Below the pieces are notes generated by a model that did no database searches, was not told where the DNA came from, and was given only the letters and a program-made list of their open reading frames with translations. A program made the translations under genes and the position numbers. This document shows, one piece after another, positions 19,326 to 58,832 of a DNA stretch of 64,000 nt. Every line of letters begins with the position of its first letter. The first letter of the stretch is position 1. Origin of the DNA: Rhynchopus sp. YZ270_cl-10. Lineage: Eukaryota; Euglenozoa; Diplonemea; Diplonemida; Diplonemidae. The stretch is taken from NCBI GenBank assembly GCA_964035575.1, contig OZ037834.1, positions 392,631-456,630 of the forward strand, read 5' to 3'.

Positions 19326-19362
19326 GGATGGGTGTGCACGAGAAGGCACATTTCATCTGAAC
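19326..19362 (+). repeat. GAGA-loop hairpin, family R4
   Basis: Stem TGTGC / GCACA, with an A bulge on the 5' side and the loop region CGAGAAG, followed by TTTCATC. Related copies are at 19,919-19,962, 24,082-24,142, 24,561-24,603, 27,339-27,366, 32,098-32,133, 39,122-39,148, 48,672-48,708 and 58,796-58,832. Confidence 0.7.
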
Positions 19363-19462
19363 AAAGGTTTTTTTTTCTCTTCTTTCTTTGTTTGGGTACA
19401 TTTTAGTGCACCCTATTGTACCATCTATTCAGTAGAATAGATAGTATATGAAACAACTTCTT

Positions 19463-19554
19463 TGGTGTTCCGGAGGGGGCCTATATTGACATATCCTTGA
19501 CAATGTCCTTGACATGTCAAGGACATATCCTTGACAGGGGTTTCATGAACACCA
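19463..19554. mobile_element. Short inverted-repeat element, GGTGTTC / GAACACC ends
   Basis: Ends TGGTGTTC...GAACACCA enclose several TCCTTGACA words in both orientations, with a central TGTCAAGGA palindrome. Related ends (GGTGCTTTCGG / CCGGAGCACC) occur at 56,262-56,319 and 59,863-59,918, and a one-ended copy starts near 55,635. No coding capacity, so it is MITE-like. Confidence 0.65.
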
Positions 19555-19918
19555 TTATTTCTTTCATTTGAACAGAATGTGTGTTAAAAAAATGGAGGGA
19601 AAAATCGTGTCGTACGACGAAATACCAACCCCCCCCTCTCTGCGGGTTCACATTATCGACTTTTCTTTTTTACTTGCGAACAACCTTTATGTGTGAGGTG
19701 GCATATGCTTTACCCCATATGGTGACTGCATATCCGTCCTTTCTATTGCCCCCCCCCCCCCCCCCCCCCCACTATTGTCAATATACCCCCCTTTTTTTTT
19801 TTCCCGTTTGTTTTCTTCCTCCCGTTTTTTCACTTTATTGTGGGGCATACGGAAGGAGGTAACAAGACATCTATTTTCTTTCTTTTGTTTGCGAAAATAC
19901 CCGATACACATTTGCTTG

Positions 19919-19962
19919 TGAGATGTGTATGTGTGTGTGTATGAGAAACACATTCATCTTTC
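19919..19962 (+). repeat. GAGA-loop hairpin R4 with T-A closing pair
   Basis: Reads TGTGT-A-T[GAGA]A-ACACA, enclosed by GATG and CATC. Relative to the 39,122 copy, the closing pair C-G is replaced by T-A and the stem pair C-G by T-A. These are compensatory changes that keep the fold. Confidence 0.75.
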
Positions 19963-21117
19963 AAGTTTTCTTTTGTATGTTCCAGTCAGAGGTTTACGTC
20001 TGCATTTCTTTTTTTGTGCGTTTCCATACGAAAATTTATTTTTTTTTTTTTGTATGAATCCATACGGTTTCCATTCTGTCGATTATTTTTTGTATTTTTT
20101 TTTTTGTTTTTGCCAGGTGTTGTTTATTTATTGATGCGATCTTTTTTGTGTGACAAAAAAAAGCCATTCTTTTTTCTTGTCTTCTGAGTCATTGTCTGTA
20201 GCCTGTCCTTTTGAAAATAGGTGAATGGCGTTCTCAAGAAAAAAAAAAAAATCAGCCTTCTCGGGCAACTTTGTGGTACTGTGCATGCACCTGCCTGCTG
20301 GTGAGGTTGGTTGCAAATCTTTCAACTTTTTTCTATTTCTTTTCATTCAGTACAAAGAGGTGAATTATTTATTTGATTTACAAAAAAACAAAAAAAAAAC
20401 AAAACTCCATTGCTCTTCTTCGAGGAATTCTGTCTTCGGTTTCAAAAGAACCGACCAAGTTTCTTCCCCCTTTTTTTGACTTTTCCCTCATATACTATCA
20501 ATTTATTGATTGCATATGATGAAAAATACGTTTTTTTTAAACCCGATCCAGTAACAACCCCTGTTCCCAGTCTTATTATTTTTCCCAATTGTAAATTTAG
20601 GTTTTGCAATAAAGGAAAGAAAATAGTCCCCATTCCCCCGTTGTTGTATATCGTGTCTTTCGTCCGTTGAGGCGTTTGTGTTCACATATCAACCTTACTT
20701 TCTTTGTTTAGGTGTTGTGTAGACGAGAGACGATTCATCAAAACAAGGCTTCCTCTTTTTTTTGCTTTTTTTTTTTGTTTTGTTTTTCTCCAAAAGGGGT
20801 GGGTTCGTAGCGTCCTTCTCCGTTGAGAATATCGGTATTGAGAACCCTCATAACCCTCTTTGGATAATGTGCAAGAGAGAGAGGGAGATGCACATTTGTC
20901 TGTCATTTTTTTTTTTTTTTTCCATTTTTCCCTAGTAGTGTGTACAAAGGAGTAGGGTACACGTACGATTCCCATCCCCTTTTTTATAACTCCACAATAG
21001 TTTTTGCGAATAGCAAACAAACAAAAAATCAAATCAAAAAAAAAAAAAAAAAAAAAAAAAAAATTCTTCTCTTTGTACAAATCTGTTTGTCAAGAATAGA
21101 AAAAAAAAAAAAATCTG

Positions 21118-21210
21118 CGTCTATACCTTCTGTAATACATAGGCTTCGGCCGACATTGAGTATACAGATCGTTATACCAGTAGGTATAACGCGATTGTCG
21201 ATACAACCAA
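21118..21210 (+). repeat. Structured repeat family R6
   Basis: About 95 bases: TACCTTCTGTAATACA, a GGC[TTCG]GCC hairpin, ATTGAGTA, the hairpin GTTATACC[AGTA]GGTATAAC, then GATTGTCGATACAA. Copies are at 42,841-42,920 and 63,748-63,845, with diverged ones at 22,043-22,122, 31,905-31,973 and 47,820-47,886. The central stem keeps its place while its bases change. Confidence 0.75.
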
Positions 21211-21462
21211 AAAAAAAAAAAATCAAAAAAAAATCCTCCAAACGATATCTCTTTTCATTGACAGCTCGTTCCCCCCCTCCCAATCCCATTTTTCAAACAA
21301 ACAAAAAAAATGCGTAAAAAATATACAGCACAAAAAATATTTTCATTATCCCCACTCTCGCTCCCCATAATCTCTCGTATCTGCTTTTTTTTCTTTCTAC
21401 ATCGGGTCTCAACCAAGCCTTCCGGTTACCTTTTAGCGACCCAGAACATGGATTACAAAAGA

Positions 21463-21795
21463 TCTTAATTAAGATATGAGCGAAAAACACCGTTTTTTTA
21501 AGATCTTAGTGTTTTCTTAAAATTAAGTAAGATCTTAGTGTTTTGTGTTGAATATCTTAGTTTTTTTTTGTTAAGATCTTAGTTTCCACCAAAAAAAAAC
21601 TAAGATCTTAAAAACAAAACTAAGATCTTAAAAATAAAGTGGCTACGATCTTAGAAAAAAAAACTAAGATCTTAGAAAAAAAACTAAGATCTTAGTTTTT
21701 TGGTGTTTTTTTCCACTAAGATCTTAGTGGAAAAAAAAAACTAAGAAGATATCAAAACCCCGCTCAAAAAAAATTTCCCCTTACTAAGATCTTTT
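21463..21795. repeat. Array of AAGATCTTAG palindromes
   Basis: More than a dozen copies of AAGATCTT(AG), a self-complementary word, spaced by 5-35 bases of T- or A-rich sequence in alternating orientation. The spacing is irregular and spacers are homopolymeric, so it is not a CRISPR. Imperfect inverted ends containing GAGCG-type words lie near 21,478 and 21,760. Confidence 0.8.
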
Positions 21796-22042
21796 GTTTT
21801 CCATGCCAGAAGAAAGAGAAAGGCGAGGGGGGGAGGGGGGTTTTTTTTTGACAGTGTTTTTTTGCCTAAAAAAAAAACAACACCGTTCTTTCACCGCTTT
21901 TTGTCGGCCGAATAGCTTTAATATTTCTTCGCAAGTCTTTCTCTAAAAAGAATAATAAAAAAAAAACAAATCTCGTTTGTGGGTAAACATGCCCTACAAA
22001 TTTAACAAAAGAAATAACAAAAAAAAAAACAAATCAAAAAAA

Positions 22043-22829: not shown

Positions 22830-23525
22830 AAAGCATTTTTTTTTTGTCTCTGTATCTTGTCAGAGATTTTGTGCGTCACAGACCATCAGTCTTCTTTTTC
22901 GGCTATGTGTACTGTCCTTGGGGAAAAGGAAAAAAGGAAAAAAAAAAAAAAAAGCTTCATTTTCATTATAAATAAAACACGTCACACAGCGTCGTATGTC
23001 CCAAAATTCAACAGACATAGTTATATCTTCAATTCTTTAAAAACAAATTGCACCCTTTTTTATTGTTTCAGTGCTCTTGCGGCCCGCTAATATCTCCCAG
23101 TGGCGGTTTGTATCTTACAACTTCTCTTTTCATGCCAATCATTGTTATTTTCTTTTCAAGCCTGTGTTTTTTTTTTAAATCTTTTTAGTTTAGCCAAATG
23201 GTTCATCTTCTTGCCCCAACTTCTTTTTGTGGGGATTGATCAAAATATTTCAAAAAAAAAAATTGAAAAAAAAAAAAATGAGTGATTTCGGGTCAGTTGA
23301 GGTGTCTTTTATATTCAATAACTATTCCTTTTGGTTTTGCTTCCTCTAGATGACAATCTAGAAAAAGAGAAGGGAAAAAAAAAAAAAAAAAAAAAAAACG
23401 GTATAGTGTGCTGTAATGACTTCGCAAAACCCGAGAGGCTGCGGGTCATCCCATAAGCTTTGTATACCTTCTGTTGGCAGAGTACCCCTTTGTCTCTTTT
23501 TCTAACAGATCCCCTACTCCCCATG

Positions 23526-23696: not shown

Positions 23697-23733
23697 AAGG
23701 TACACTGTCACGAGAGGACTTTGTATTGCAAAA
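23697..23733 (+). repeat. GAGA-loop hairpin, family R5
   Basis: Outer TACA / TGTA pairs and inner GTC-A-C[GAGA]G-GAC. Other copies are at 27,428-27,463, 28,005-28,043, 29,776-29,813, 33,248-33,283 and 34,569-34,603, with a weak one at 41,965-41,998. Some copies extend upstream into GTAGGACTGCATGG and a C-rich hairpin. Confidence 0.7.
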
Positions 23734-24560
23734 AAAAAGCCATATTTTTCTGTTGTTGTTAAAAGACAGCTAAGCACAGAGCGACTTAGGTTTTTCGTCG
23801 TTTTATCAACCTTCCCCCACTCCTCCCTGGTTTTTTTTTTTATCACAAAGGTCAAAGTGTCTTTTACTTACGTGATACAATAAAAACCCCCCAGTTCACA
23901 GCAAACCCCATAAAACCCTGTTCCCCCATTCTCTTCCCATGTATATCGAGGTTCTTTGAATGGCCTGTGTACGTCTCTATTGGTGAGGTGCCCTACCATC
24001 CGATTGACCTCATTTTTTTTTTTTTTTTAGTGCCTGCGTCCTCCTGAGGGGTGTGCACTGTCAAACTTCGCTTGCTTTAAGGATGAGTGTGTGTATGTGT
24101 GTGCATGAGAGGATGGAAAGCACATTCATCTTTCAAGTATTCTTTCTTTTCTTTTACCCTGTGAAGACGTCGCTACGATTCTTTTTTGTTGGAAATAGAA
24201 AATACAAAAAAAAAAAAAAAAAATCTGTCTCGTACGTCATCACAAAAAAAAACACGATTTGTCTTTCCCGATTTTATTTTATTTTTTTGATGTGCAGCAA
24301 CAACAAAAAAAGTACAAATACACTCCTTGATACCTCCAATAAAGGTGGGATATGTTCGAGGTTGGTGTTTTTGCTTCTTTTTTTTTGATAATTTGTTTGG
24401 TTAGTGGAGTAGTCTTATAGTTTGTTTTACTGTCTATCTGGGCAGCTAAGAGAATAGATTAATGATAACTGTTTTTTTTTCTTCTTCTTCTTTTTCTATT
24501 GTTGTTGCTTCGTCAGTATCACTACACGGTTTCCATACCAGGATAGGGGTTTTTTTATAG

Positions 24561-24603
24561 ATTGTGTGTGTGTGTGTGCACGAGAGAAGACACACTTCAT
24601 CTA
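24561..24603 (+). repeat. R4 hairpin copy with GT expansion
   Basis: The 5' arm has expanded into (GT)n. CACGAGAG and ACACACTTCATC keep the loop and 3' arm of family R4. A similar expanded copy lies at 24,082-24,142. Confidence 0.6.
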
Positions 24604-25403
24604 AACACTTTTTTTTACATTTTGTTTTGTTTATTTAGTTCATCATTGCATTTACCAATATGGGCGTTTTACACAAAACTCTCCCTTCTCAAAAATTTCC
24701 CCCCTTTTTCCACCCCCCCCTCCCCTCCCGTTATTCCCAAAAAACCCGCGAAAAAAGTGTTTTCCGTAATTTTTTGTTCTTTGCGGCGCTTTTATTTTAT
24801 TTTATTTTTCAATTTTCCTTTTTTTTTCGTAATGTAGTCCCTTCCTAATCTTTCCTTTTTTTTGGTAATTTTGTTTTTTTTTGTTTTCTGAACCTGAAGC
24901 AAAAAAAAAAAGAGGAAATAAAGGAAGATTAAAGGAAGGGAGGACAGAGAAAGAAAATTCATCTACAATAAAAAAAAAAAGCTCGAGAGACTACTCTTTA
25001 GCTTGTTGCTCGGGAAGCATACTAATTTTTTAAAAAAAACAGAAAAAAATTTAAATTGAGAAAAAGTAAAAAACAACAACAACGATTTTTATTTTTATAC
25101 ACCTGCGATTGGCCTCGACCAAGGTCTATCCTAACGACTTAAGAAACGAAAAGAATAAACTAAAAAAAAAAAATTGACAACTCCCCCTTTTTTCCCCCTC
25201 CTTTCCAAAACCTCTTCATAATAACCTATTACCCATTCAAACCATCACCAGAGGGGGCACCAACACCCTTTTACAACCCCCCCCTCTCTGTCTACACATT
25301 TTTACACATTCAGTACACATTTATCGGGGAATTTTTTTTCCTGTTTTTTTTCTCCCTCTTTCTCTCTATTCCCCTACCCTCTGTTCTCCATTAAACCAGC
25401 ATC

Positions 25404-27091
25404 ATGGCCCAGGCAGGTGGGTACAGTGCCCAGCCAGGGGCAGGAGGGATGAACACCTCCCCGGCACCAGGGGGAGGGGGTGCGAAGGGGGCGTACACGT
25501 TCCAGCAGAAGCCGCAGGGGATAGGGCGTGGGCTGTACAGGGACCCTGCAGCGCAGTCGTCGCCACGGCCGATGAACATTCATCATGATAAACGTGTTGT
25601 GAAAGGTATGTAGTGCCCCCTGTGTTGCTGTCAAAAAAGAAAGAAAACAACGAAAAAGTAAAATAATGGTGTGGCTGAAAGGGGGGTGCGATAAAGTGCT
25701 ATTTTGGGCGTCTGGATTTTGGTGTTGGTCATTGTGCTTAAAAAAAACAGCCGAGAATTCCTCCCTCGAATTTCCCGTATTTTTCCCGTCTAATTACACA
25801 ATATTTTTTTCTCTCTCTTTTTCAAGATGACTAAGCGTAATCTTATAAACTTTTTTCCCTATGATTTTCCCTTCAAAATTTACCCCCCCTTTTCAGGAAA
25901 CACTTATGCGGCTCAGGTTCTTCCCTTATCTGCGCAGATGGAGCTGCAGATGGCGGAGAAGGAGGGCGAGCGGCAGAAGAAGCGGATAGCGGCAGACCAC
26001 AAGCGCCGCAAGCAGGAGGAGCAGAAACGGTCGCTCACGCCGGAGCCTATTGAGGGGCGCCGCCACATGGACGTGCAGACGGAGCTGTACCTTGAGGAGC
26101 TGACGGACGCTGTCGAGGAGGCCACGGCAGAGACACAGACGGACCCGATGCTGGACAGGCCGCCGACACCGAAGTTCATCCCCTCCAAGAGCGGGCGTGA
26201 TGCGGAATGCCAAATTGAAGAAGGCGACCTCTTTGACTTTGACTACGAGGTGCAACCCATCCTGGAAGTTATGGTGGGCAAGACAATGGAGCAGGCGATG
26301 CTGGAGGTATTGAAAAATAGGGGGCTTAGGTTCATCTTAAAAACTATTATTTTCTTTTTACCACACCACCCTATCCCCTATACAGGTCTTACAAGAGGAG
26401 GAGATTGACAACCTGCGCCAGCAGCAGCTTGAGTTTGAGCAGCGTCGGAAGGAGGAGGCTGTCGAGACCCAGCGTCTGGAGGCTGCAGAGAAGCGTAAGT
26501 ACGAGGAGAAGGAGCGCAGGAAGAGACAGGAGCAGGCACGTCTCCGTCGCGAGCGTGTCACGAAGGAGAAGCTGGCGGCCCGCGTGTTCGCGAAGCAGTT
26601 CCTGAGCAACCTCGAGCACCGTGTCTTCGGGAAGCTGGAGGACGAGGGCTGGTTCTACGACGCGGCAGAGCGTGAGATCGAGACATCGTTCCTTCCATGG
26701 CTGACGCAGTCGGTTGCATCCAACATCGACAAAATGCAGAGGACGCGCAATACTGTAGATGAGTTGGTATGTCGAAGTGAAGTGTTAAAAGGGGGGGTGG
26801 GCCCATTATCCTGAATATTTCAGATTTTGGTTTCCCGACTAAATTTAAATTCCATTAAAAAGTGCTTATTATCCCGCTTCTATCCGGGTCAATAGCCATG
26901 CCGTAGATGAGTTGTTATGGGAAGTGGGGTTTTTATTGGACAGAATATTTATTACACCACCATGAATCTAAAAAACACTTTACGCACAAACAAAATCTCC
27001 GCTTCTGCGACAGGTGCGCATCGCAATCGAAAAGGCGAAAGTAAAGCCAAAAGTAGAGGAAAAGCCCGAAGCTGAGGAAGTTGAGGCATAA
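25404..27091 (+). CDS. RSPH3: Radial spoke head protein 3 homologue
   Basis: Exons 25404-25605, 25897-26306, 26386-26766 and 27014-27091, 356 residues, all phases consistent. Diagnostic RSPH3 features are visible: the DKRVVKGNTYAAQ segment across the first junction, the MDVQTELYLEEL and AETQTDP stretches, the acidic FDFDYEVQPILE segment, then a long charged coiled coil (EEEIDNLRQQQ onward) and the AKQFLSNLEHRVF block. The family's known role is to form the radial spoke stalk dimer that anchors to axonemal doublets and binds kinase regulatory subunits. The length is close to core RSPH3 proteins without animal-type extensions. The last exon is short, Lys/Glu-rich and ends at TAA. The start ATG follows a C/T-rich leader with CCAG four bases upstream. 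It implies a motile cilium. Confidence 0.96.
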
Positions 27092-28118
27092 AAAAAACAA
27101 AAAAACAAAACAAAAGAAATAATCCAAAACAATAACAGAGGAAACAAACAAAGGGAGAAGAAGAAAAAACTAATTTGACCAAAGAAAATCTCAACTGAAA
27201 TACGCTGAGTTCTTTTTTCCTCCTTTTTTTTTTAGTCAGCAAAACAAAACCCCTCAAGTTTCTGCTTGAGGATTGTTGTGCCGCAAAAAAGTGGGTATTT
27301 TTTAAACACCCATACCTTCCTTGCAACCCTCTTATAGTCTTGATGTGCACGAGAGGTATTTGCATCTATTCATTTTCTTTTTCTCTTTCTTTCCCCCCTC
27401 CACCCGGTGTTCTGGTCACACACCAAAAAGGTACACTGTCACAAAGAGGGCTTTGTATTTCAAGTCATTTTTTTTGATCTTCATCTACACAAAGAAAAAA
27501 ACTGGTATTTGGTAACTCAGAAATCCAAAAAAACGGGTGGTGCACACTCTAGAGTAGCTACACTAATACAGCCAAGTTTTCAAAAAAGCAAAGTACGCGA
27601 CAACTAAGCACTAAGTACGCAAGAAGTACGCAATATGGGGTCGTCAGGAGCACCAGTACTACAAAAAAACCCCTTTTCTCACAAAATGGAAGATCTCTTT
27701 AGGGAGTCCTGTTGTTTTCTCGCGGTGGAGAGAGAGAGAAAACGAGAGAAAAAGAGAGAGAGAAAAAATGGGGAACAACCAGTTCTTTTCCCACCAAAGC
27801 TCCTCCCTACATCCCCTCCCTCCCTCATCACCTATTCTTTCCTTCACACACCCCGTTTATTGAAAAGCAAAGGGAAAAAAAAAGGATGCTGGTTATATTT
27901 TTTCCCCAGTGTTCATTTCATGGAAGCGGGAAGTAGCATATTATCTTGAGGTAGGACTGCATGGTTTGGGTGTCCACCTCCCCCCCCCCTCCGGTACAGC
28001 CGGTCATACCAAAGACTGTTTCACGAGAGGGGCTTTGTATTTCATAGTAAATTTTAATGACTATGTCTGTTGACACATAATCAAACAACTCAGAATACAC
28101 ACAAAAACCCACAGAACA
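27092..28118. other. Intergenic repeats between RSPH3 and the lyase
   Basis: Contains an R4 hairpin (27,339-27,366), an R5 hairpin (27,428-27,463), an R2 hairpin (27,537-27,588), the GTCGTCAGGAGCACC repeat (27,606-27,654) and another R5 copy (28,005-28,043). The stretch 27,725-27,770 is GAGA-rich. No gene is seen. Confidence 0.7.
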
Positions 28119-31100
28119 ATGCGTGCCTCCAGAACCTGCCTTGCCCTTGGAAAGATGAAGGGTCTTGTTATCCCCCCTTTCACCGTCTACTCCAAGAACG
28201 GCGACGTGGACATCAGCAAGATCGCAGAACACATTCAGATCATTGAAAAGATGAACGGCACTGCCGTCTTCCTGGGTGGGACCGGAAGCGAAGGTGCGAG
28301 CCAAACCATCGAAGAAAGGGTTGCCATCGCTACGGAATACCGCCGTGTGTTTGATGCGACGGACTCGAAGTTGAAGCTGATGCTCCACGTAGGTGCCACC
28401 TCGCTGAAGGAAAGCCAGCAGCTTGCAGAGGCTGCAGAGACCCTTAAGGTTGATGCCATCGCAAGCGTTACCCCCACCTTCTTCAAACCCGCCAACGTCA
28501 ATGTTATGTCGGAGTGGATGTCCGAGCTTGCCTCTGCAGCCCCGAACACCCCGTTCTATTACTACCACATACCGGTCATCACGAATCTTCCTGCGACCAT
28601 CAGCGTCAAAAAATTCCTGGAGGTGTGTGGCCCTAAGACGCCGACCCTGCACGGTATTAAGTACACAGCGATGAACCTGGCGGAGTTTTCTGATTTGACG
28701 CAGGTCGCTGGGGGGAAGTACGACATCATGGCGGGGCTGTCGGAGCAGATGCTTGCAGCGCTTGCCATGGGAGCCAAGGCGTCGGTGTCGGTGCCATACA
28801 ACAACCCGTTCGCGATGAAATACTACCACAAAATCCTGGAACAGTACAACGCAGGAGACCTGAATGGGGCGCTGAAGACACAGCAGGAGATCAACAAGCT
28901 GACGTACCTTTTGCAAGTATGTAGTCCGGCTTTAACCCCCCTTTTTTTTTCATTCCCACTTTATCATAACCACAAACACAAATACAGCAAAGGGTACATC
29001 TTTGTATCACCCTCTATTTCCTTCTTTTCGTAAAAGAATGTATCTGAACTAATTCATTTCCTTGTTTTTAGTTTATTCATCGGCGGCCCTCCGTCTTCAA
29101 AACCGATCCCTGATTCTGTGCGCGAAATGAGTATTATTTTTTGCCTCGCTCCCCAAATGCAAATCATCGTCAAGATGAGCTGTGTTCTTGTAGCGCACGG
29201 GGGGAGATTCGCCTTTAAGGTTAGTCACCCACAACAACCGTTGCGAGTGGTCCTCCTTTTGGCCACGTACTGCAGGAGAGGGATATGGAGCTTGAGCTGT
29301 GCTCTTGAACGTTGCCGTTGCTAACTCTGAACCGCTTGCCCGCCCTCCGATATGTATCGCATCTTTCTTTTAAAAAAAAACCTCGTATATTTGCTTTATC
29401 CTGGGGCCACGCCTCACGTGGTTGATTGTCAGTTGCTGCTGTGGGATCGATTGTCGTCCGAGTCGGCTCAGCCAGCTCAATTTATTCGCTTCTACGCAAA
29501 GTGTTCAATGTGTTTCTCCAGGGTATTCAGGAGAAATTGCATTTTGTCCACGTTGTCATTGGCAACCATAGCATATTTCCCTCTCTTTTCGGGAGGGCTT
29601 TGTGTGTTGCCAGGGCAATGTGGACAAGGTCTACTACGGCTCTATTCCGTTGTCCCTTGTCCAGCTGGTGGTCATGCGCCACATCCCGCAAGATGCTGTT
29701 GTAAGACGGGCGTTTTTCTTTTTGTGCTTAACCCTATTCATTTGTCCACCCCATTGTACAGCCGGGTCATGTGCCAAGGTACACTGTTCATGAGAGAGGG
29801 CTTTGTATTTCATTTATTTGCCCAGCAATGCTCTTTTATTTTTGTATTTCAACCAGGGGTGGGCGGGCACCCTGGGGTTTTTTCCATTTTTTTGGATCGG
29901 GCACCCAGGTTTTTTCTAAGGATTTTTACAGGCAATTTTTGGATTTTTCTGAGAACACGCTGCCCCCTGCCGAAATATGTTCTCGGTTTTCCCTTTTCGG
30001 TGGGTTTTTTTTGGCCTTTTTCGGGTTTTCCGAGCTTTTACCCTCACTGTCACGGGGTCATTTTGAAAAAAATGGGCAAGTTCTTGGCTGATACACGTTT
30101 TGGTCATTACCACCAGCGAGTTGCTTAGCGGGGTTAAATTGAACTATGATTCTGGACCCACTGTAACGTGAACCGCCCCCTCGAAATTCAAGAAGGGGTC
30201 CTAAACCCGGGCGCGCTACGCGCTACGTGCACCCCGAATGTTCGGGATGAATATAAAACGGCGCCGCAGGCGAAAAAAAATTAGGGTACAGTATAAAAAA
30301 TGCCGCTTTTATACCACAAAGCCACTCAGCGAATCCTTTTTTGCAGAGCAAAAAAGGGAAAATGGCGCCGCAGGCAAATTTTTTTTAAAGGTGCAGACCT
30401 GGGAGGCGCTGAATTATTTTTCTTTTTCGTTCCTCAGTGCCGTCAGGGCCTGCCCAAGTGCGCCAACGCAATGCACTTTGCTACCACCGTGGTGGCGAGC
30501 ACTTGTAGCACTGCAAGAAGCAAGGTTCCCTCGACGTTTGCAGTCACACGCACCATACTGTATTATTATTTATTCTGTTGTGCGGGAGGTGAAAGGGACG
30601 AGACCGAAGGAAGCGGGGTGGAGACTTTTTTTGTTCATTATGGCTTGGTACCGCACTCCCGGGCAGAGTGCGAGTTATTCTCAGCCACACGGGGCCCGGC
30701 CCGACCCCCCAGACTTTTTCCCCTAAGAAAAACCCTTAGAAAAATAAATTTTCCCCGTATAAAATCCTTAGAAAAAATAATTTTTCCCCCGTGTAAAATC
30801 CTTAGAAAAAATAAAATAAAATCAAAATCGGGCCCCGGGCACCCACTTTAGGCCCAGGCCTGATTTCAACTCTACTTTTGTTTTTTTTCCTTCAGAGAGG
30901 ATAGATGGTTAGTTCTTGGGGAAAAAATCTGCTATTTTTTTTCTTCTTCTTTTTCTTCTTCAATTCTGTGAACTGAAAGTATATGAATCTAATTCTTCAA
31001 AACACACATTTTTTAGGGACGTTATTCTACGCGAGAAATACCCTATTTTTATCAAAACCCCACATATGGGTGACATTTTGGTTTTGCCTTGGAGGAGCTA

Positions 31101-31310: not shown

Positions 31311-32550
31311 AAAAGGAGAAGGGCGAGAAGAGGGGGTGGGGGGGAGGGACAGCTGAGAATAAGACTCGGGGAGTAGGGACCGGGGACCGGGAACCCGGAT
31401 ATTCTCAGCTGGACTGGGACCTGGACCGGGACCCAGCTTATTCTCAGCTGTGGGAGGGGAGGAGGGGGGAGGGAGGTGGGAAAAAGGGGGGGTTTTTTTT
31501 TCGTTTCCTCTGACGTTGCCGGAAAAAGTGGAAAAGTGGAGATTTGCACAACTGTGGCGACACAGTCGAGGTAATTACACTACTCCAACAAATTATCAAA
31601 AAGCGAATGTGTTTAACGGGTATACCTTCTATGCTGCATTGTAATTTAAAAAAAAAACGTTTTGAAGGGAGGAAGGTCTGACTGACTTGGTTAGATTTTT
31701 TTTCCCCCTTCAATTTTTATGGATCCCGTGAAGAGAAAAAAAAAAAATATTGGTCGTCAAAACAAATCAGACAATTTTTTTTTCTCGTTCAAAAATGTCT
31801 TTTTTGGCAAGATTTGTGATGTGCTTCCGTGTAGCCTATATAAAATGATGGGGGGTGATTGGAGGTGGGGGTGTGGAAAGAAATAACCCCCCCACCGCCA
31901 TAAAATAACATTGATGTACAGACCCTATTAGCCCCAAGCTGGCTCTTAGGCGGTTGTCGATACAATACTAACATCCAAAACGTTTGCACCAGGGCATTTT
32001 ACTATTTTTTTAAAAAAGCCCTGTGTTTTTATATAGTATGGTGACTAAGCACAACGAGGCTTAGGATCATCTGAATAAAAAGCATTTTTCTTTTATAGAT
32101 GTGTGCGCACGAGAGGTACGTTCATCTTTCATTTTTTTTTTTCTCTTCTTTTATTCACCCCTTTGTTTCACCGAGGGCGCTTTGCACTTTCCCTGTTCTC
32201 TTTTTTTTTTCGTTTCTCAAAAAGGTGGCCAAAACACAGAGAGGCTTATGATTCCCCTAGAGTGTGCTCCACTATGGGTGTGGCTGAAAGGGGGTACTAT
32301 TTTTGTGCTATTTTGTGCTACTTTCTGCTATTTCCTCTATTTTGGGGTCGGCCACATCAACTATACTATTTTTTTCTATTTTTTTTTCAACTCCACATCC
32401 CCCTTTCCCCCCTTCGTCAGTGGGGAGGGCAGGTGTTGATCCACGGTCCCCTGATCCACGCATACGCTTGTTTTTGCCCGGATTGCAAAAAGCTACACTA
32501 AACGAAAAACACACGGCATTCCTTTCTCCCTTCCGAGAGTCCTCCCTCCC

Positions 32551-33041: not shown

Positions 33042-33199
33042 TCCCTCCCCCCCTTTTTTTTAGCTCTATAATAGCCTCTCCCACACATGCGAACTAGATC
33101 AGGATGGATGTCCCTGTGTTCGCAATGATCCTGACATTCATCTGATGAGGTGGAAGCGGGAGTAGCACATTATCAGATGGAAATTCACGAAATGGATTG

Positions 33200-33283
33200 T
33201 AGGACTGCATGGTTAAGGTGTTCACCCCCCCTGTACAGCTGGTCATACTAAGGTACACTGTTAACAAGAGGGTTTTGTATTTC
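33200..33283 (+). repeat. Extended R5 repeat
   Basis: GTAGGACTGCATGG, a C-rich gap, CAGCTGGTCATAC and then TACACTGTTAACAAGAGG. The extended form also occurs at 27,951-28,043 and 34,522-34,603, so the R5 hairpin is the 3' part of a longer unit. Confidence 0.65.
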
Positions 33284-33401
33284 AAGGCAACTTTTTATTT
33301 GTGCTGTTTTCGGACAAAAAATCTAACCCACACCCCAACTCAGGTCTTGTTTTTTTTCTTTTTTCCCTCCTTCCTCTTCTGCTTCAGGGAGATACAACAC
33401 A

Positions 33402-33626: not shown

Positions 33627-33779
33627 TGTGCAAAAAGGAATGTGTGATTTTTTTTTGCAACAAAAAATACATCCAGCTAGACACAAAAATAACCCGGCTC
33701 GCTCAACGGAAGGGAAGGGTTTTGCGCCAATTGGGGTGTAAAGGGGTACGTCTCTGCCAATCGAGACGCGGGAGGGGGT

Positions 33780-34318
33780 TTTCGGGAGGTTTGGGGGGGA
33801 GTTTGGCGTGGAGGGGAGCAGCGGTACGATCTTTCCCACAGTAGGCGCAAGGTGTGTCCTAAGGCAAGCTCAGTGAGAACAGAAATCTCACGTAGTGCAT
33901 AAAGGGTAAAAGCTTGCTCGATGCAGTGCTCTTCATTGTACCAAATACCCTCGGTGTGAAAGCATGGCCTAACGATACCTTTGGTCTCACTTCTGAGGGA
34001 TGAAGCCGGAGTGACAGAAAAAAAATTAGGATAACTGGCTGGAAGATTGCTCGAAAATCATGATATTGGCTTTGTTTTCTATTGTCGTATTCCACATTTT
34101 TAGAGTCTACATTGTCGTTTCCCCTCGAAAAAATGACGGGCATGAACGCAAGGAGAACAGAAGAGGTGGGGGGAGCTTTTTCCATATGCCTTAGAACCAT
34201 CCTACTAGAGGGTGTGGCTCGATGGGATGACGGTTGCAAAGACAATAGAGCTGATTTGATGGGTTCTGCAGCATTTGAGAGGATGGTGATTTTCAGTGTT
34301 GTGAATATGTCTACGGTT
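33780..34318 (+). pseudogene. Diverged LSU rRNA domain V-VI segment with poly-A end
   Basis: Follows the order of eukaryotic LSU rRNA: GGGGGAGTTTGG (33,795), GTGTCCTAAGG (33,854), GAGAACAGAAATCTCA (33,875), AAGGGTAAAAGCT (33,903), GTGAAAGCATGGCCTA (33,956), GTGACAGAAA (34,011) and GGATAACTGGC (34,030). A degraded sarcin-ricin word GAGAGGA follows near 34,275. The 5' part is well conserved, while the 3' part is heavily changed, even at the peptidyl-transferase and sarcin-ricin positions. It stops at an A run (34,321-34,330). It is most likely a retroposed, decaying rRNA copy. A divergent natural rRNA piece in a lineage with fragmented LSU is the alternative. Confidence 0.85.
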
Positions 34319-35287
34319 TAAAAAAAAAAACAATGCCTTCTCTTGGTGACTACATCATTAAAATAACGCTGCTTTGATGGGCCGTTGTTGTTGTTGTTGT
34401 TGTTCTAGGAAGACATTTTCCCCTTTTCTGTTTGAATTGAAACACAAAGGTGAGTGACGAAGCACAGAGAGTCTTAGGGTCATCTTATAAACTTTTCTTT
34501 TGATACAAACCAAGAAATGGATTGTAGGACTGCATGGTTTGGGTGTCCACCCGGTACAGTCATACCAAAGGTACACTGTTCACGAGAGGGGCTTTGTATT
34601 GCAACTCTACTTTCTTTCCCCCCATGTACACCCATCACACGATGCTCATGCTCGAACAACCACGTTGAACGTGCCAAAAAAAAAATAGGATAAACTCTGG
34701 CTGGGGGTTTTACATTATCCCCGACCACACCCTTTTTTTTGTGCAAGATGACACAGCTGATGCTGTGCGATAAAACGATTTGTGTTCAAAAGGTAGCTAA
34801 CCACAGCAAGGCTTTAGGGCCTTCTTCATGAACCCTTTTTTTTTTCTTTTTCTTTTTGGTGAAAATACACAAAAAAAAGGCACCCTGAACCCGTTCTTCC
34901 TGCACCCCCTCCCTCTTTTGTTTTGATGGTGAGGAAGCAAGAGCCCTGTAGGGGTGTGTCTCTTAGCGTCCCTCTTCCCTCCTCTGGATTGCTTCGTTGT
35001 TGTTGTTGTTGTTGTTATCGTCGTCTTCCTCTTGCAGGAGTCTTCCTCCTTCTCTCTCTTCCGCTTCACTCCTCTGGGCACGACGCGCTTCTTTTCGCCC
35101 CACTTCGTCGTGGGTTTTGAGAAAATAACCCATGTGAAAATTCACTTCAAAAAAAACCACACCATACAGCACTCTCTACACAAGAGAAAAAAACTCCCCT
35201 CTCCTTCTCTCCACCCCCGGGTTTTTGCCTCTTCTTTTTTTCTTACTCTCTTTTTGCTTTTTGTTTTTGTTTTTTTGTAACACCACA
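34319..35287. other. Repeats upstream of CHMP5
   Basis: Holds (GTT)n at 34,384-34,405, an R3-type hairpin (34,448-34,483), an extended R5 (34,522-34,603), a diverged R3 (34,791-34,829) and another (GTT)n near 34,995-35,020. The last 150 bases are C/T-rich leader sequence before the CHMP5 start. No gene is seen. Confidence 0.65.
34522..34603 (+). repeat. Extended R5 repeat
   Basis: GTAGGACTGCATGG, GGGTGTCCACCC (a hairpin by itself), GTCATACC, then TACACTGTTC-A-C[GAGA]G-GGGC and TTTGTA. The inner GTTC/GGGC stem is paired through G-T pairs. Confidence 0.7.
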
Positions 35288-37200: not shown

Positions 37201-37408
37201 CATATGCAAGTCCACTATGTGGTGGTCTTACTCAACAATATTAGAACTTCTGGTTTCTTAATGAAATCCCCGTACTGCAAAAAAAAAACGTTCCTACCAA
37301 AACCCCCAAAAATCCCGGGATGAGGGATGGACTTTAGCGCGAGCTCTGGGGTCATCTTATAAACTTTTTTTTTGTCGCACAACTACCCCCCATTGCATCC
37401 CCCCCCCC

Positions 37409-38594: not shown

Positions 38595-39222
38595 CCCCCC
38601 CCCCCCCCCCCCACCCTGAATGCTCCCCCGTGGGTTTCAATCACCAAGTATCTTTGTTTCGCTCATATTTTTTTTCCCCCTCTGCCCACTGGTAGCGTCA
38701 CCCCCCGCCTTACATTCTGGTAAAAGGAAATTGAATTGGCGGTGTGGCTTTATTTGTGATTTTCACATTGGCTTTGCAGTGAAATCACAAAGGAAAATCC
38801 ACAAATTAAGTCAATTTACTTCACTTCATTATGTAGTCCGGGACCTTAGCCCCCCCCATCCTTCTTTTATCCCCTCCAAAAGCACTGCGAAGGCCCCAGT
38901 TTATCTTACCAAAAAACACCCTTTTCTTTGTTATGAGTTTACCCCCCCTGCTTCCCCCACCCACCCTTTCTGAAAATGTTGAACAGCCAACCCCCTACTT
39001 TGCTTGATGCAAAACAAAAAACAAAAATTGTGTCCAGAGAGAACTAGCCTGGTTGGTTTGAAGGATTGGGTGCGAGAGAATTTTTTTTTTTTTTTGTTGC
39101 TGTTTTTTATTTATTTTGAGTTATGTGCACGAGAGGCACATTCGTCTCACAAAAAAAGGGGTTTTTTTTTTTTAAAGTCTGGCTATGCATTGAGAGTCTG
39201 ATTGATTGATTGATTGATTGGC

Positions 39223-39303: not shown

Positions 39304-39737
39304 ACTGACTTTTTCGTTTTTCTTCTTCTTCAATTTTCCCTCTATCTCTCTCCCAATCCCCGTTCACCCACACCCCCCCTCCTGAATTATAGATGCAAAG
39401 AAGTATTGCATCTCGAATGGCATTCCCAAGGGTGTTTGCGCCTTACCTCACCCCCCCCTGCCTTTTTTTATAATAGGTCCAAGCTATCCGCCTATGAAAA
39501 GAAGAGTTTTTTTTTTTGTGACAACACAATTATTGTAGTGTTTTTTGGGTTGCATTTAGCTAGTGAACCCCTTCGTTTTGAAGACGCCAGTCAAGGTGGA
39601 GAGTTTTTGGCTGAGCCCTGGGGCGGTTTTCAAAAAATCTGACAGTGGAGATTTGCACAAACTGTGGCAACACTACCGAGGCAAACTACACTACTCCAAC
39701 AATTTATGAAAAAATAATAGGAGGAGGTGAAGTGTTT

Positions 39738-39792
39738 AGTATAGTGGAGCACACTCTAGGGTGGCTACACTAATACAACAAAGTTTTCAAAA
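39738..39792 (+). repeat. R2 hairpin copy
   Basis: TAGTG and CACTA arms enclose CACT[CTAG]GGTG, followed by AAGTTTTC and an A run. An R1 copy lies 26 bases upstream, at 39,642-39,712. Confidence 0.7.
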
Positions 39793-40090
39793 AAAAAAAA
39801 ACAAAAAATAAAGACTAAAAAAGGAGGGCTAGAAATGGTGAGGGGGGGAAGAAGTTCAACCGTACCAGAAAATTAAAGTTTTTTTTTTAAAAAAAACCCT
39901 CGCCCCGGGCCCAATCCCGCTCCCCTTATCTGACTTTTTTTTATATACTGTGCGCAAAAATACTACCCAAAAATAAAGCCAACGAAAGGGTTTTTTTTGT
40001 ATTTCAAGTCAAAACTTTTATCCTCCCCCTCCCTCCACACTTCTCCTCATCAGGTCTCTGATAATTCAAAAATCAGATTTCAAAAAAAAA

Positions 40091-46670: not shown

Positions 46671-47704
46671 CCCCCTTGAGACACCCCAACTCTGGTTGTA
46701 GGTTTTTCAAAAAAAAAAATGCAATTTTTATTTTTAGATTTTGTGTGTTGATACAGCTGGACACACTGTTTATCTCGACACTTCCCCTCCGGCAAGGGCT
46801 TGATCTTTCCCAGCAAGCTAACCATCTGCCCGAGTTTTTTTCTTTTTTTTTTCTTTTATTTTTTTTGTACCTACAAAAAAGCGTAGGCTTAAAAGGAGAA
46901 ATAGGTCCTCAGATACGGTCGCCAAATCACCCCCCTCCAAGCAATCAGCGAAAAAAATCATTTCCCCCCCCCCCCCCCCTTTTTGCTTACCTATCAGAGT
47001 TACTATTTTTTTTTAAAGTAGTGAGAGGGCAAACCACACTTCGGTGGGTTGTTGCACTCAAGTATACGAAAAAACCACCCAAATGCCAATGTGTGTGCGC
47101 TGCTGGTACTGCACCAATGTTAGCGATGACTGCCCTAAACCAATCGGACCAGATCCCCTACCACCCGTGACGAGAACCAACAGCTAATGCGCTCACAGGC
47201 ATTTTTTTTTCTTCCTTTTCAACAGAAGATTAATTTTATACCACCCTGCGCGACTTTCTTTTATTTTGAAAAACACGAAAAAAGATTCCTGAAGACCAAT
47301 TGGTCATGGATCCAAAACACAAAAGCAACAACAAAACAAAAAAGCAAATAGTACATTTTTAAAGACCACCAAAACAAAAAGAGCACAAAGCAAAAACAAC
47401 AACTTTCTGACAAACACCCTGCGCGACTTCCCTCTTTTTTTTTTCTCTCTCTCCTTCGGTGACTAAGCATGAGAAGCTTAGACATCATTTTCAACTTTTT
47501 TTTTTATTACTCCTCCCCTAGTCAACACCCTCGGGCGAGACGCATATTGTTGTACAGACGAAAGCCTTTCTCAGAGTGGGTGATTGTCTGTACACAATGA
47601 CCGAATCAAGTTTTTTCCCAAAAAAAAAAAAAAAAAAAAAAAAAAAGTGGAGAAATGACACAGATGGTCGAAGCGAGGATTTATTGAAATACACAACTTT
47701 TTTT

Positions 47705-48162: not shown

Positions 48163-49180
48163 GAAAAAAAAAAAAAAAAAAAAAAAAAAGAATAGTGGAG
48201 TGCATCCTCGGGTGTTTATCTACTACAACCAAGTTTTCAAAAAAAAAAAAAAAAAAAGGGAACAAAAACAGAAACCTCAAATTACCAGATACCCCGTTCT
48301 TGGCGTGTCATCATTTATTTCAAGTTTTATCTTTTTCTTCGATTCTTTATTATTTTTATTTTTGTTGTGGGTTTTTTTTAAGTCTACTCCCTAAGTGCAA
48401 GAGACTTACTTAGGCCCATATTCCCAAACACTTCTCCTCCATCACCCCTTTTTGTCATTGTCATTTTTTTTTCTTTTCTTTTCAAGGTGCCCAAGCACAC
48501 GAGAGGCTTAGGTTCATCTCATAAAATTTTCTTTACTTTTTAAAAGATGGTTTTTTTTTTTACTCTCCCCTTCCCTGCAAAAATAGCAACTCTCATTGAA
48601 AAACTGGTAACACTTTTGTTGTCTATACCATTAAAAAGTTTTAAAGATGGTAGGTTACAGTGGGGGGGGACAAGATGTGTGTGCACACAGAGAGGCTCTT
48701 CCATCTTTCATAAGTTTTCATGTTTTTGATTTTTTTTTCTTATTTTTTTTTTTTGATTTTGTGCCTGCATCCGCCGATGAACGGCGAGGTGTTTGCACTT
48801 TCAACACCCCCCCTTTTTTTCTTTGTTGCACTCCGGGGTTCGATAACCCGCGGAGTGTCAGTGCCTGCGTCCTAGAGGCGTTTTGCACTATCAACTTTCG
48901 CTTTTTTGTTGTACCGTCGTAATCTACGGAAGTTTCAACTTGTGCACGAAGCATTTTACTTTTCTTTTTTTTTACGTTTTGCAAAACATAAAAAAGAAAG
49001 TTGGGGAACATTTTTTATTGATCCCCTCCTCCTATGCTATCAATTTATTGATTTGCATATGATGAAAATACTTGTTGTATCGTTCCTTTTTTTTTTCTGA
49101 CTTCCGTACCTTCCCCAAATCTCCCTCTTTTCTCTCTCTCTCTCTCCCTCTTCTTTTTTCCTTTTTCCTTTTCGCGATAG

Positions 49181-49965: not shown

Positions 49966-50503
49966 ACTGGGGGGGGGGGCTAATAAAGTATACGGTGCTA
50001 ATAAAGTATACGGGGGTAATAAAGTATACGGTGCGGAAACCCATTTTGAGCGTGTAAATCTGTGAAATAAAGTATACGGTTTTTGTGTACATTTTTCTTA
50101 CTAAAAAAAATTTACAGCAATTTTTGCACAAAAAATCGGATTTTTTTTTTTTTGATTTCGGTGGTCCGGATTCTGTGCGTGCTGTGATGGGGTCACTTTG
50201 AGCTGAGAAACGAGTATTTTTGACCTAAAACGCGTGTATCAGTTTTTACACGATTGGTGCTGATGGGGTTCAGATTTGTGAAAATTTAAGTCACCAAAAA
50301 ATTGTTCATTTTTCCACATTGACCCCACCACTGGCTGGGATTGGCCCAAAAATGTCAATGGTGGTGTTTTCGCGAGGTTTCGGCCACTAGAAACCCCAAA
50401 ATAACAGTGATTTTTTTTTTTTTTCCTTTTTCGTTTTTTGGCCATTTAAGCAGTAATTCCCGCCGAATAAAGTATACGTATACTTTAATAGCTCCCCCCC
50501 AGT
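49966..50503. mobile_element. Inverted-repeat element with AATAAAGTATACG words, nested in a hairpin repeat
   Basis: Ends ACTGGGGGGG...CTAATAAAGTATACG and the inverse CGTATACTTTAATAG...CCCCCCCAGT. AATAAAGTATACG occurs four more times inside. Two GACCCCACCAC-type cores lie near 50,190 and 50,320. Flanks GATGACT and AAGCACAGAGAGG rejoin into a normal R3 hairpin, so the element sits inside one. Confidence 0.85.
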
Positions 50504-50801
50504 AAGCACAGAGAGGCTTAGGGTCATCTTTGTAAACTTTTCTTGTTCTTTTTAAAGAAAGGGTACATTTTTTGCACCCTCTTTGCATTCTTTTTGTTTC
50601 GCTAAGAAAAGAATGTATATGAATTAATTGTTCTTTTCATTCTTTTTCTGCCACCTCATGAAGGAGGAAATAGAAAACATTTTTAAAAATAGGATGGGGC
50701 ACCCCGTTCCGAAGAGGAATGCAGCCACCCCCTACCCCCTGGCTTCAGGCTTGCGAACCCAGTATTGATGTAACACAGGGTTTCACGGGGCTAAAAAAAA
50801 T

Positions 50802-57201: not shown

Positions 57202-57302
57202 CACAATTTCCCAGATTTTCCAGATCTGGTCTCACCAGATTTCATCATCTGGAAAAAGTCAGATCCTGGGATTTGATTTACCAAAAATCTGGCCAGATCT
57301 GA
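57202..57302. repeat. Cluster of CCAGATCTGG-type words
   Basis: CCCAGATTTTCC, CCAGATCTGG, CACCAGATTT, ATCATCTGG and GGCCAGATCTGACAG lie within 100 bases in both orientations. It resembles the other word-array elements but has no clear ends. Confidence 0.5.
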
Positions 57303-57430
57303 CAGTTACTTCCGTGATATGACCAAAAGGGATGGGGAATATTTTGATCCTTATACCCGGTACTTTCACTTTCATTTGAACGTTTTGGGTATAATGCTCC
57401 CTTTTTTTACGCACACTACTTTGTGAGCGG

Positions 57431-57563
57431 AAAGTGTCACGTCGTTCACTCACCCAACCGTGCTCCGCAACACCACCACCCAACAGGTGATTTTTAGTGT
57501 GTGTGGAAGCGTCAACGCATCAAACTACAAGAAGGAGGGTGAGGGAACGACAAGTGACACTTT
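57431..57563. mobile_element. MITE-like element, AAAGTGTCACGTCGTTC ends
   Basis: AAAGTGTCACGTCGTTC at the left and GAACGACAAGTGACACTTT at the right, 133 bases. Better preserved than its relative at 51,777-51,916. Confidence 0.82.
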
Positions 57564-57739
57564 GCTTTTGTCTTTTTGGCAAAATGCATCTATTTTGACC
57601 AGCAAACTACTATACACGAATACCCCCCATCATCTTCCCCCTCTCTCTCCCTCCCTTAGGGAAAGCTAAAAAAAAACAAGTAATTGCTATCGGAAAAAAA
57701 ACGGGGTGTGATGTGGAACTCCATCCTGTAGAAATAATC

Positions 57740-58080
57740 TACAACATGCCCAGCATTCTGCTCTTCTGCAGGTATGCTAACGCTCTTCGTAAGCTGCCAG
57801 ACCCACTGGGACGCCAGCATCTGAAACGTTCAAGAAGGGGGGCTGTCCTCTTCGTCCAGCACCATCTGCTCGATAGCGTTGTTTGACGTCGGCTCGGCAG
57901 GCTCGGCGTGTTCCAGCTCGTTTTTGTCCACAGGCTCCCCACATTGTCGTCGTCGTTGGAGCAGTGCGGAGGGAACACAGAATGCACAGACTACAACACA
58001 TCGATCACACCAGGCACATCAACACCTCCAGCAAATCGCCAGGATACTACGGTGGTTTCGAAAATCGCGCGGAGTTTTCC
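57740..58080 (-). pseudogene. Coding-like island, possible gene remnant
   Basis: GC-rich and codon-like in an A/T-rich setting. On the minus strand one frame reads an acidic stretch (NELEHAEPAEPTSNN, then IEQMVLDEEDSPPS and a stop near 57,835). A neighbouring frame continues with LNVSDAGVPVGL. No start, family or clean exon borders are found. A broken gene or short terminal exon is the likeliest reading. Confidence 0.3.
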
Positions 58081-58199
58081 ACATCACACCCGTTTTTCCT
58101 TAGCAATTACTTGTCCTTGTTGCTATTGTTGTTTTCAACCACCTTCCTTCAACCCTTGTAGGGATCAGTTGTAATTTTTTTTCGCGAAAACATGAAATT

Positions 58200-58460
58200 A
58201 TACATTTCAAGAGAACAAATTAAAAAGGGTCCTTATTTGCATTTTTGGGCTCCGCCCGTGCAGTGGTGGGGTCAATCTCGAAAATTGGACAATTTTTTGA
58301 CCACTTAAATTTTGAGAAATATGAGCCCGGTTGCTTATACGTGGGGCCCATTTTCAGCTAAAATTTTCCTCAAAATCCGGGTTTGTAAAATTGACCCTTT
58401 CCCCCCCCCCACATCGATTTCAATACTATACCTTACTTCACCTACGGTTACCCTTACAGG
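58200..58460 (-). repeat. Inverted copy of the 32.6-kb element interior
   Basis: The reverse complement matches 32,600-32,790 closely, including CCCAAAAATGCAAATAAGG, the GACCCCACCACTG core, GGGCTCATATTTCTC and a GTAAGGGTAACCGTAGGTG-type word. The terminal CTGCAGACTAAG is not seen, so the copy is partial. Confidence 0.75.
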
Positions 58461-58795
58461 GGGGGGTGAAGGAAGGTAAGTTGAAAACACAAACACAAAA
58501 AAAGCAAAAAACAATAAATTACGGTGCTTTGAAAGAAAGAACCATAGGTCTACCGGGTGTAGTCAGCGTCACGCCTCCCTCAGTAGGTTACAGTGAGGTA
58601 TAGAAATTCAGGGGCCAGAATAAATTAGCACAACCAAGAGAATGCAGCAGCTTCGGGACCCCCTCTTTTTTTCAAATCTAAAATAAAATAATATATTTTC
58701 ACGCACACCAAAGAAGAAGAAGAAGGAAAAAACAGGGCATTTGTCTGGACAACTGTAGGTCAGTAGCTATCATAGACCTGTTTATGTTGGGTATC

Positions 58796-58832
58796 TATGT
58801 GTGCACAAGAGAGGTACATTCATCTTATAAAT
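58796..58832 (+). repeat. R4 hairpin copy
   Basis: TGTGTGC, ACAAGAGAGG and TACATTCATCTT keep the arm, loop and tail of the family. The sequence after it is T-rich. Confidence 0.65.

What the first reader, a model, noticed from the sequence alone, without database searches (positions are those of the whole stretch)
19326..58832. Dispersed hairpins with a GAGA loop, a bulged A and covarying stems
Three families (R3, R4, R5; about 25-30 copies) share one plan: a 5' stem arm, an unpaired A, a closing pair, GAGA (or AGAGA), a 3' arm, outer pairs, then a T-rich tail. Stems differ but stay paired: TGTGC/GCACA at 39,122, TGTGT/ACACA with T-A closing at 19,919, TAAGC/GCTTA at 55,965 and, with closing T-A, at 47,457, and GTC/GAC at 23,697. 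The compensatory changes and fixed loop argue for selection on an RNA or single-stranded DNA fold rather than plain repeat descent. All clear copies are on the + strand, as are the genes.
Basis: partly seen in the sequence, partly recalled or inferred. Interest (0 to 1): 0.82.

Follow-up and report, generated by a model that had tools for sequence, protein, structure and literature searches.

The report
Retrotransposon tail hairpins, one strand only
The scattered hairpins are best read as the 3' ends of LINE-type jumping genes in a diplonemid-like protist, mostly cut down to little more than the hairpin, and they sit almost without exception on the strand that reads like the neighbouring genes, which hints that transcription guides how they insert.

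Summary
In detail: hairpins with a GAGA loop and bulged A lie at the stated places, on the strand of the genes, and belong to families of hundreds to thousands of copies in a 152-Mb euglenozoan genome. Covariation exists between families but is not seen within them: arms and loops of single copies drift. The R4 hairpin is the 3' end of a LINE: it follows the stop codon of a 1462-aa reverse-transcriptase ORF by 12 bases, and dispersed R4 copies are graded 5' truncations of it, piling up at the hairpin base. R3 is a related tail with compensated stem changes. R5 has the same plan, but no LINE was found for it. Best reading: 3' tails of the stringent type, where the element's protein reads loop and bulge and the stem only has to pair (inferred from studied LINEs). 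The unexpected part is strand: of 377 listed hairpin places, 170 could be judged by agreeing neighbours within 200 kb and all 170 are sense (225 of 226 at 400 kb); reverse transcriptases of other families are 16 sense, 7 antisense. T- or pyrimidine tracts do not explain this; no target-site duplication was detected. How the strand is chosen is inferred, not shown.

The parts
19326..19359 (+). R3-type hairpin, TGTGC/GCACA, loop GAGAA
19921..19974 (+). R3 hairpin, GTGTGT/ACACAT with T-A closing, and T-rich tail
23427..23461 (+). weak R4-like match
   Evidence: E 5e-3
23697..23731 (+). R5 hairpin, GTC/GAC
24095..24145 (+). R3 copy, diverged
24571..24616 (+). R3 copy, diverged
26323..26353 (+). 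weak R4-like match
27344..27381 (+). R3 copy, diverged
27428..27475 (+). R5 copy without an intact GAGA core
27992..28055 (+). R5 copy, 64 bases before the ATG of a DHDPS-family ORF
29756..29812 (+). R5 copy
32037..32094 (+). R4 copy, diverged
32097..32142 (+). R3 copy next to the R4 copy before it
33100..33317 (+). long R5 repeat (about 220 bp), hairpin part 33233-33296
34451..34501 (+). R4 copy with AGAGA loop
34545..34616 (+). R5 copy
37336..37373 (+). weak R4 tail
39117..39152 (+). R3 hairpin, TGTGC/GCACA, outer TGAG/CTCA
47456..47504 (+). R4 hairpin with T-A closing pair
48484..48534 (+). R4 copy
50496..50544 (+). R4 hairpin with AGAGA loop
55959..56009 (+). R4 hairpin with AGAGA loop
56658..56694 (+). 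R4 copy, partial
58796..58840 (+). R3/R4-type copy (both probes match)

Best explanation
The hairpins are the 3'-terminal stem-loops of LINE-type (non-LTR) retrotransposons of a diplonemid-like euglenozoan. Shown: the R4 hairpin with its T-rich tail ends a LINE with a 1462-aa reverse-transcriptase ORF, and dispersed R4 copies are 5' truncations of it, most of them starting at or near the 5' base of the hairpin. Supported by homology: R3 is the tail of a related lineage whose stem changed on both sides. Inferred from the shared plan: R5 is the tail of another such element. Inferred from studied stringent-type LINEs: the element's protein binds loop and bulge in the RNA and starts reverse transcription from the tail, so that stem sequence may change if pairing is kept, while inserted copies drift. 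Shown: copies lie in the sense of the surrounding genes. Inferred: the strand is chosen at insertion, cDNA being primed from the transcribed strand in connection with polycistronic transcription.
For: LINE end: stop codon, 12 bases, R4 hairpin and tail in L075; the same sequence at a second copy on C39, where only the last 400 bases were read on that side; LINE end joined to hairpin at 129+98 exact places, control 0. Truncations: 41 of 46 R4 loci align with the LINE into the hairpin, upstream extension 185, 122, 33, 24, 18, 12, 12, 12 ... bases, 23 of 41 at 0-4 bases (20 of 38 if three loci without left flank are left out); the two longest are 97% identical to the LINE. R3: left extension GATAACGATAGTGGTAAAGATGTG-like at 38+30 places, alignable with the end of the R4 LINE. 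Fold: R4 consensus z -3.5 and -2.9. Strand: 26:0 R4, 21:0 R3, 24:1 R5 in 264 kb; 170:0 genome-wide for the places that could be judged, LINE-joined copies 30:0, other RT families 16:7; 42 of 42 kinase domains on the strand of the nearest hairpin within 100 kb. Drift: no pair-keeping in R4. Tail recognition by loop, with exchangeable stem, is known for ZfL2-1 (PMC4176376, passages), and a bulge is needed in the eel LINE (PMC5135761, passages).
Against: No target-site duplication stood out (mean match 3.12 against 2.67 shuffled, 145 of 2000 shuffles reach it; matches of 6 or more 11 against 9.4). No LINE was found for R5 or D among the 14 RT places followed downstream, one of whose ORF ends (L085) was not reached. 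Upstream of three long R3 copies there was no match to the R4 LINE protein. Five of 46 R4 loci did not align with the LINE. Some folds are weak: R3 from 32.1 kb z -0.3, R5 forms z -0.2 to -1.1, one R5 form not folding into the hairpin at all. The bulged A lies 1 pair from the loop, not 4-6 as in the reviewed tails. The 1462-aa RT family alone is 2:0 (7:0 at 400 kb), too few to differ from other RTs by itself (p 0.16).
Confidence: 0.8

Rival explanations
1. Host RNA elements: hairpins between genes or in long 3'UTRs that bind a protein and steer mRNA stability, poly(A) addition or trans-splicing; the LINE carries one of them.
For: Sense-only; 1 of 71 R3-R5 places inside called ORFs against 37% of random points; 7 of 23 R5 copies lie within 170 bases before a called ATG against 6% of random points, though some R5 copies are identical tandem copies; long 3'UTRs are usual in Diplonema (PMC10161547, section read).
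Against: Single copies do not keep pairs or loop; R4 copies grade into LINE ORF sequence; distances to genes otherwise look like random intergenic points.
Confidence: 0.1
2. Insertion takes either strand and selection or RNA interference removes antisense copies.
For: Diplonema has RNAi genes (PMC10161547, section 9); antisense copies would pair with many sense transcripts (inference).
Against: Antisense insertions of other repeats persist in the same units: repeat E 15:10 (E was picked as control after one search had shown it on both strands), other RTs 16:7. Near-exact and LINE-joined copies, presumably young, are already all sense where judged.
Confidence: 0.3
3. Strand follows the target: the endonuclease or the tail prefers T-rich or pyrimidine-rich tracts of the coding strand.
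For: Flanks of R3 and R4 are T-rich; long pyrimidine tracts favour the coding strand (20 or longer: 105 against 40).
Against: Tracts on the other strand are common (A-tracts of 8 or more away from elements 217, T-tracts 253), so a quarter or more of copies should be antisense. A more specific target motif is not excluded.
Confidence: 0.2
4. DNA hairpins moved by a single-strand transposase (REP or IS200/IS605 type, or Helitron ends).
For: Imperfect hairpins with a bulge; strand blocks could also follow replication from one switch per contig.
Against: R4 sits behind a reverse-transcriptase ORF and its copies are graded 5' truncations.
Confidence: 0.03

Closest known systems
Stringent-type LINE 3' tails (UnaL2, ZfL2-1, ZfL2-2, SART1)
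   Same: A stem-loop at the very 3' end of the element followed by a short simple tail; loop constant and stem exchangeable (shown for ZfL2-1, PMC4176376 passages); a bulge is characteristic (PMC5135761 passages).
   Different: Loop GAGA or AGAGA and a bulged A one pair from the loop, instead of a bulge 4-6 pairs away; T-rich tail; most copies cut at the hairpin base; strictly sense in polycistronic units.
Leishmania SIDER retroposons
   Same: Dispersed remains of retroposons in polycistronic units with a sense excess: about 4-fold sense over antisense, antisense enriched in spacers (PMC2689281 passages).
   Different: Here the judged copies are 170:0, copies are about 50 bases rather than several hundred (SIDER length recalled), and a hairpin defines them.
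Human L1 insertions in genes
   Same: A strand bias that arises at insertion and depends on transcription (PMC5717806, abstract and passages).
   Different: Opposite sign and partial: L1 avoids sense (39 antisense, 17 sense de novo inserts in one set), explained by transcription-coupled repair.
Dispersed repeats of the Diplonema papillatum genome
   Same: Directional gene clusters, many LINE-type ORFs, dispersed repeats, scattered 28S pieces (PMC10161547, sections 7-9).
   Different: 'Hairpin' and 'stem-loop' do not occur in that main text (supplements not seen); the sections read do not discuss repeat strand.

Membership tests
Stringent-type LINE 3' tail | Hairpin at the 3' end of an element with a reverse-transcriptase ORF | tested here: met
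   R4: L075 and the C39 copy. R3: related extension only. R5: not found.
Stringent-type LINE 3' tail | Graded 5' truncation of genomic copies | tested here: met
   R4: extension 185 bases down to inside the hairpin; 20 of the 46 loci had been selected for an intact GGTGA start.
Stringent-type LINE 3' tail | Bulge 4-6 pairs from the loop (reviewed tails) | tested here: not met
   Bulged A is 1 pair from the loop; a second 1-2 base bulge on the 3' side lies 7 pairs away.
Stringent-type LINE 3' tail | Target-site duplications flanking copies (common for LINEs, recalled) | tested here: inconclusive
   65 copies; 145 of 2000 shuffles reach the observed mean; an earlier run on 40 copies with one duplicate gave 4.15 against 3.43, highest of 300 shuffles 4.38.
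Stringent-type LINE 3' tail | Endonuclease in the same ORF | not testable with these tools
   That stretch of the R4 LINE could not be fetched. Another LINE of this genome, L012, has Exo_endo_phos and RVT_1.
Stringent-type LINE 3' tail | Element protein binds and needs the hairpin | not testable with these tools
   Bench work.
Conserved host RNA element | Pair-keeping change within a family | tested here: not met
   R4 no signal, R3 weak on all rows (111 of 5000) and none on distinct rows (1114 of 5000).
Known RNA family (Rfam 15) | Match at the hairpins | tested here: not met
   whole window, two LSU rRNA pieces only; 18-60 kb, E up to 5, 56 matches; none coincides with a listed hairpin except possibly by chance at low score (37362-37418, minus strand, beside a weak R4 tail).
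Leishmania SIDER | 79-nt 5' signature of ingi/L1Tc elements | not tested
   Short copies lack a 5' part.

The most novel reading that the evidence does not exclude
A group of LINEs that inserts only in the sense of transcription: cDNA synthesis is primed solely from the transcribed strand of polycistronic units, for example at nicks or R-loops left by RNA polymerase or by co-transcriptional processing, so that each chromosome arm carries retrotransposon ends in one orientation. Copies reduced to the 3' hairpin alone would be among the smallest retroposons known.
Probability: 0.4. Interest if true: 0.8.

Novelty: new variant of a known kind. Interest (0 to 1): 0.55.

Why it matters
It turns a puzzling class of dispersed hairpins in a diplonemid-like protist into LINE tails, extends (by inference) stem-loop tail recognition to a euglenozoan, and offers a natural system in which retrotransposon strand follows transcription almost perfectly and with the opposite sign to human L1. 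That would make the question of how transcription steers target-primed reverse transcription directly testable.

Tried and rejected
5'UTR element after the spliced leader: the SL 3' end followed within 30 bases by ACGAGAG occurs once in the genome, while SL 3' ends with up to 1 mismatch occur 740 times (98 of the first 100 listed are one 18-mer, many in clusters, so these are not 740 independent mRNAs). Trans-splice acceptor module (branch point, pyrimidine tract, AG behind the hairpin): suggested by tails such as TATAAACTTTTC, dropped when the tail proved to be LINE sequence; not tested further. Rfam: see membership test. Empty-site search in 264 kb: the gaps found were other insertions, one with inverted repeats, none at an R3 or R4 element; one lay inside an R5 repeat. 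Hammerhead or snoRNA reading of the R5 body and a sarcin-ricin-like core: considered by eye only.

Limits of the counts. Place lists stop at the first 100 per search; the strand test uses 377 distinct places from four such lists, 207 undecided at 200 kb and 151 at 400 kb, where one place disagrees (C1:1310442; a second copy on the same strand lies beside it). RT places were copied for contigs C1-C44 only, 92 of 150, and sorted into families by ORF length and score by eye; kinase places likewise, 64 of 131 rows (second pieces of two genes left out). Gene calls are ORFs without introns. Model R1 was built from 17 rows, nearly all from DNA it was then run on and one a consensus; of its 42 matches 41 are on the coding strand, and all 28 with E below 0.1 are.
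Full report
Where the window lies. It is contig C2, 392,631-456,630, of a 152-Mb genome in 126 contigs. Intergenic DNA is AT-rich and called ORFs run mostly in one direction. L031 carries ACCAACGATTTCTAAAGCTACAGTTTCTGTACTTCATTG, which looks like a diplonemid spliced leader (the likeness is recalled, not looked up). Two LSU rRNA pieces in the window fit the scattered 28S pieces reported for Diplonema papillatum (PMC10161547, section 8 read).

The hairpins are real. The R4 fold is TAAGGTGA-CTAAGC-A-C-GAGA-G-GCTTAG-GN-TCATCTTA; two R4 forms fold with z -3.5 and -2.9, two R3 forms with -2.9 and -0.3, three R5 forms with -0.3, -1.1 and -0.2, and a variant with stem CTCAAC/GTTGA with -0.4. So the fold is well supported for R4 and one R3 form only. 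Genome counts with reversed controls of 0: 500 exact R3 19-mers, 1789 R4, 214 strict R3, 366 strict R5.

Covariation. I used the first 100 listed places of R4 and of R3. R4: one-sided changes 27 (9 keep a pair) and 13 (3 keep), double 4 (3 keep); 571 paired cells against 569.2 with arms dealt anew (609 of 5000 reach it; 3713 of 5000 on distinct rows). R3: one-sided 49 (6 keep) and 58 (36 keep), double 11 (9 keep); 533 against 527.1 (111 of 5000, a weak signal; 1114 of 5000 on distinct rows). The difference between the R3 arms is what transitions in a G/T-rich and an A/C-rich arm give. In the bulge-and-loop stretch I count 31 changed bases in 100 listed copies with perfect inner arms, 4.4% per site, close to the R4 arms, 48 of 1200. 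Single copies drift. Between R3 and R4, whose upstream ends are alignable, several stem pairs differ on both sides (CTAAGC/GCTTAG against GTGTGC/GCACAT); one R4 copy on C13 has CTCAAC/GTTGA.

What they are. A reverse-transcriptase search gave 150 scored places; I fetched DNA downstream of 14 and reached the stop codon in 13. In the 1462-aa family (L075) the stop codon is followed by CGAATATGATAA and the R4 hairpin with tail; the C39 copy shows the same end. The 1747-aa family (L076) ends in another dispersed repeat, family A. None of the other fetched ends carried such a hairpin directly behind the ORF. LINE end joined to hairpin occurs at 227 exact places. Of 46 R4 loci, 41 align with the LINE into the hairpin; 23 of these begin 0-4 bases before GGTGA, 7 inside the hairpin, 11 further out, up to 185 bases (three of the 23 had no left flank, and 20 of the 46 had been chosen for an intact GGTGA). 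R3 copies have a left extension at 68 places, alignable with the end of the R4 LINE; upstream of three of them there was no long RT frame and no match to the R4 or A LINE protein. R5 ends a repeat of about 220 bp of unknown origin.

Strand. In 264 kb turned to the coding strand, sense:antisense is R4 26:0, R3 21:0, R5 24:1, D 12:1, A 14:2, B 12:1 and repeat E 15:10 (some R3 and R4 places overlap). Hairpins run in strand blocks, at most two per contig in 39 of 41 contigs, three on C2 and four on C1. Judged by agreeing neighbours within 200 kb, 170 agree, 0 disagree, 207 are undecided; LINE-joined R4 copies 30:0; RT domains outside the 1462-aa family 16:7. At 400 kb: 225:1, 49:0 and 20:10; the 1462-aa family 7:0; the family A LINE 2:1, so not every LINE with a dispersed tail is strictly sense. 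Of 64 kinase domains on C1-C44, 42 lie within 100 kb of a hairpin and all 42 are on its strand. T-tracts and pyrimidine tracts are not one-sided enough to explain this.

Mechanism. For zebrafish ZfL2-1, replacing the stem by that of ZfL2-2 left about half the activity, while replacing the loop lowered it dramatically (PMC4176376, passages). In reviewed tails a bulge near the loop is characteristic and its deletion in the eel element blocks transposition (PMC5135761, passages). This fits constant loop and bulge, stems that differ between lineages, and decay of inserted copies, although the bulge here sits closer to the loop. Why most copies begin at the hairpin base is unknown; the reverse transcriptase leaving the template there, or a short hairpin RNA as template, would both do. 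In target-primed reverse transcription a sense insertion means that the template strand was nicked first (PMC5717806, passages). Human L1 shows the opposite bias through transcription-coupled repair; Leishmania SIDERs show a milder sense excess (PMC2689281, passages). Priming tied to the transcribed strand is my preferred but unproved explanation; removal of antisense copies and an unknown one-sided target remain possible.

Novelty. LINE tail hairpins are known. I saw no paper on diplonemid LINE tails or on sense-only LINEs in the searches made (open-licence PMC texts, listings read, and six papers opened in part: PMC10161547, PMC2689281, PMC4176376, PMC5135761, PMC4035085, PMC5717806). Supplements and preprints were not seen.

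Noticed in passing
window 14162-14282 and 33750-34019 (+): Two pieces of LSU rRNA in the window, the kind of scattered 28S fragment reported for Diplonema papillatum.
   Followed up: partly
window 18555-18611, 39738-39794 (family A); 39640-39714 (B); 48835-48907 (D): Three more short dispersed repeats, mostly sense (14:2, 12:1, 12:1 in 264 kb), with hairpin-like parts and tails ending in CAAGTTTTC, CAACAATTTATC or ATCAACTTT. Family A is the 3' end of a LINE with a 1747-aa ORF.
   Followed up: partly
genome G000, contigs C1-C44: By hairpin strand, 39 of 41 contigs with listed places form at most two blocks, usually minus on the left and plus on the right, as if most chromosomes had one divergent switch.
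   Followed up: partly
L029, L030, L031: Spliced-leader-like ends fused to other sequence, and 740 SL-like 3' ends in the genome, many in clusters at recurring spacings of 419 to 742 bases.
   Followed up: no
C13 about 642 kb (coding-strand coordinates 57928-58166 of the joined piece): A 237-bp insertion with terminal inverted repeats (CTGGGGGGGG...) absent from 98%-identical paralogous copies; looks like a small DNA transposon at a TA.
   Followed up: no
L012:5131-9999 (+); L089, L090: LINE ORF with endonuclease and RT domains, antisense to its gene cluster, with a 2A-like GDVEEHPGP near its start; similar HPHPGP or HPGP words near the R4 LINE's second ORF (by eye).
   Followed up: no
window 27992-28055; several C13 copies: R5 copies often lie shortly before a called ATG: 7 of 23 within 170 bases against 6% of random intergenic points.
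   Followed up: partly
C74:226317-226363 (-): The single place where an SL-like end followed by GT (perhaps an SL RNA gene) is followed within 30 bases by an R4 hairpin.
   Followed up: no
window 270-13790 (+): One open frame of about 4,500 aa; repeated cysteine-rich units by eye, not searched.
   Followed up: no
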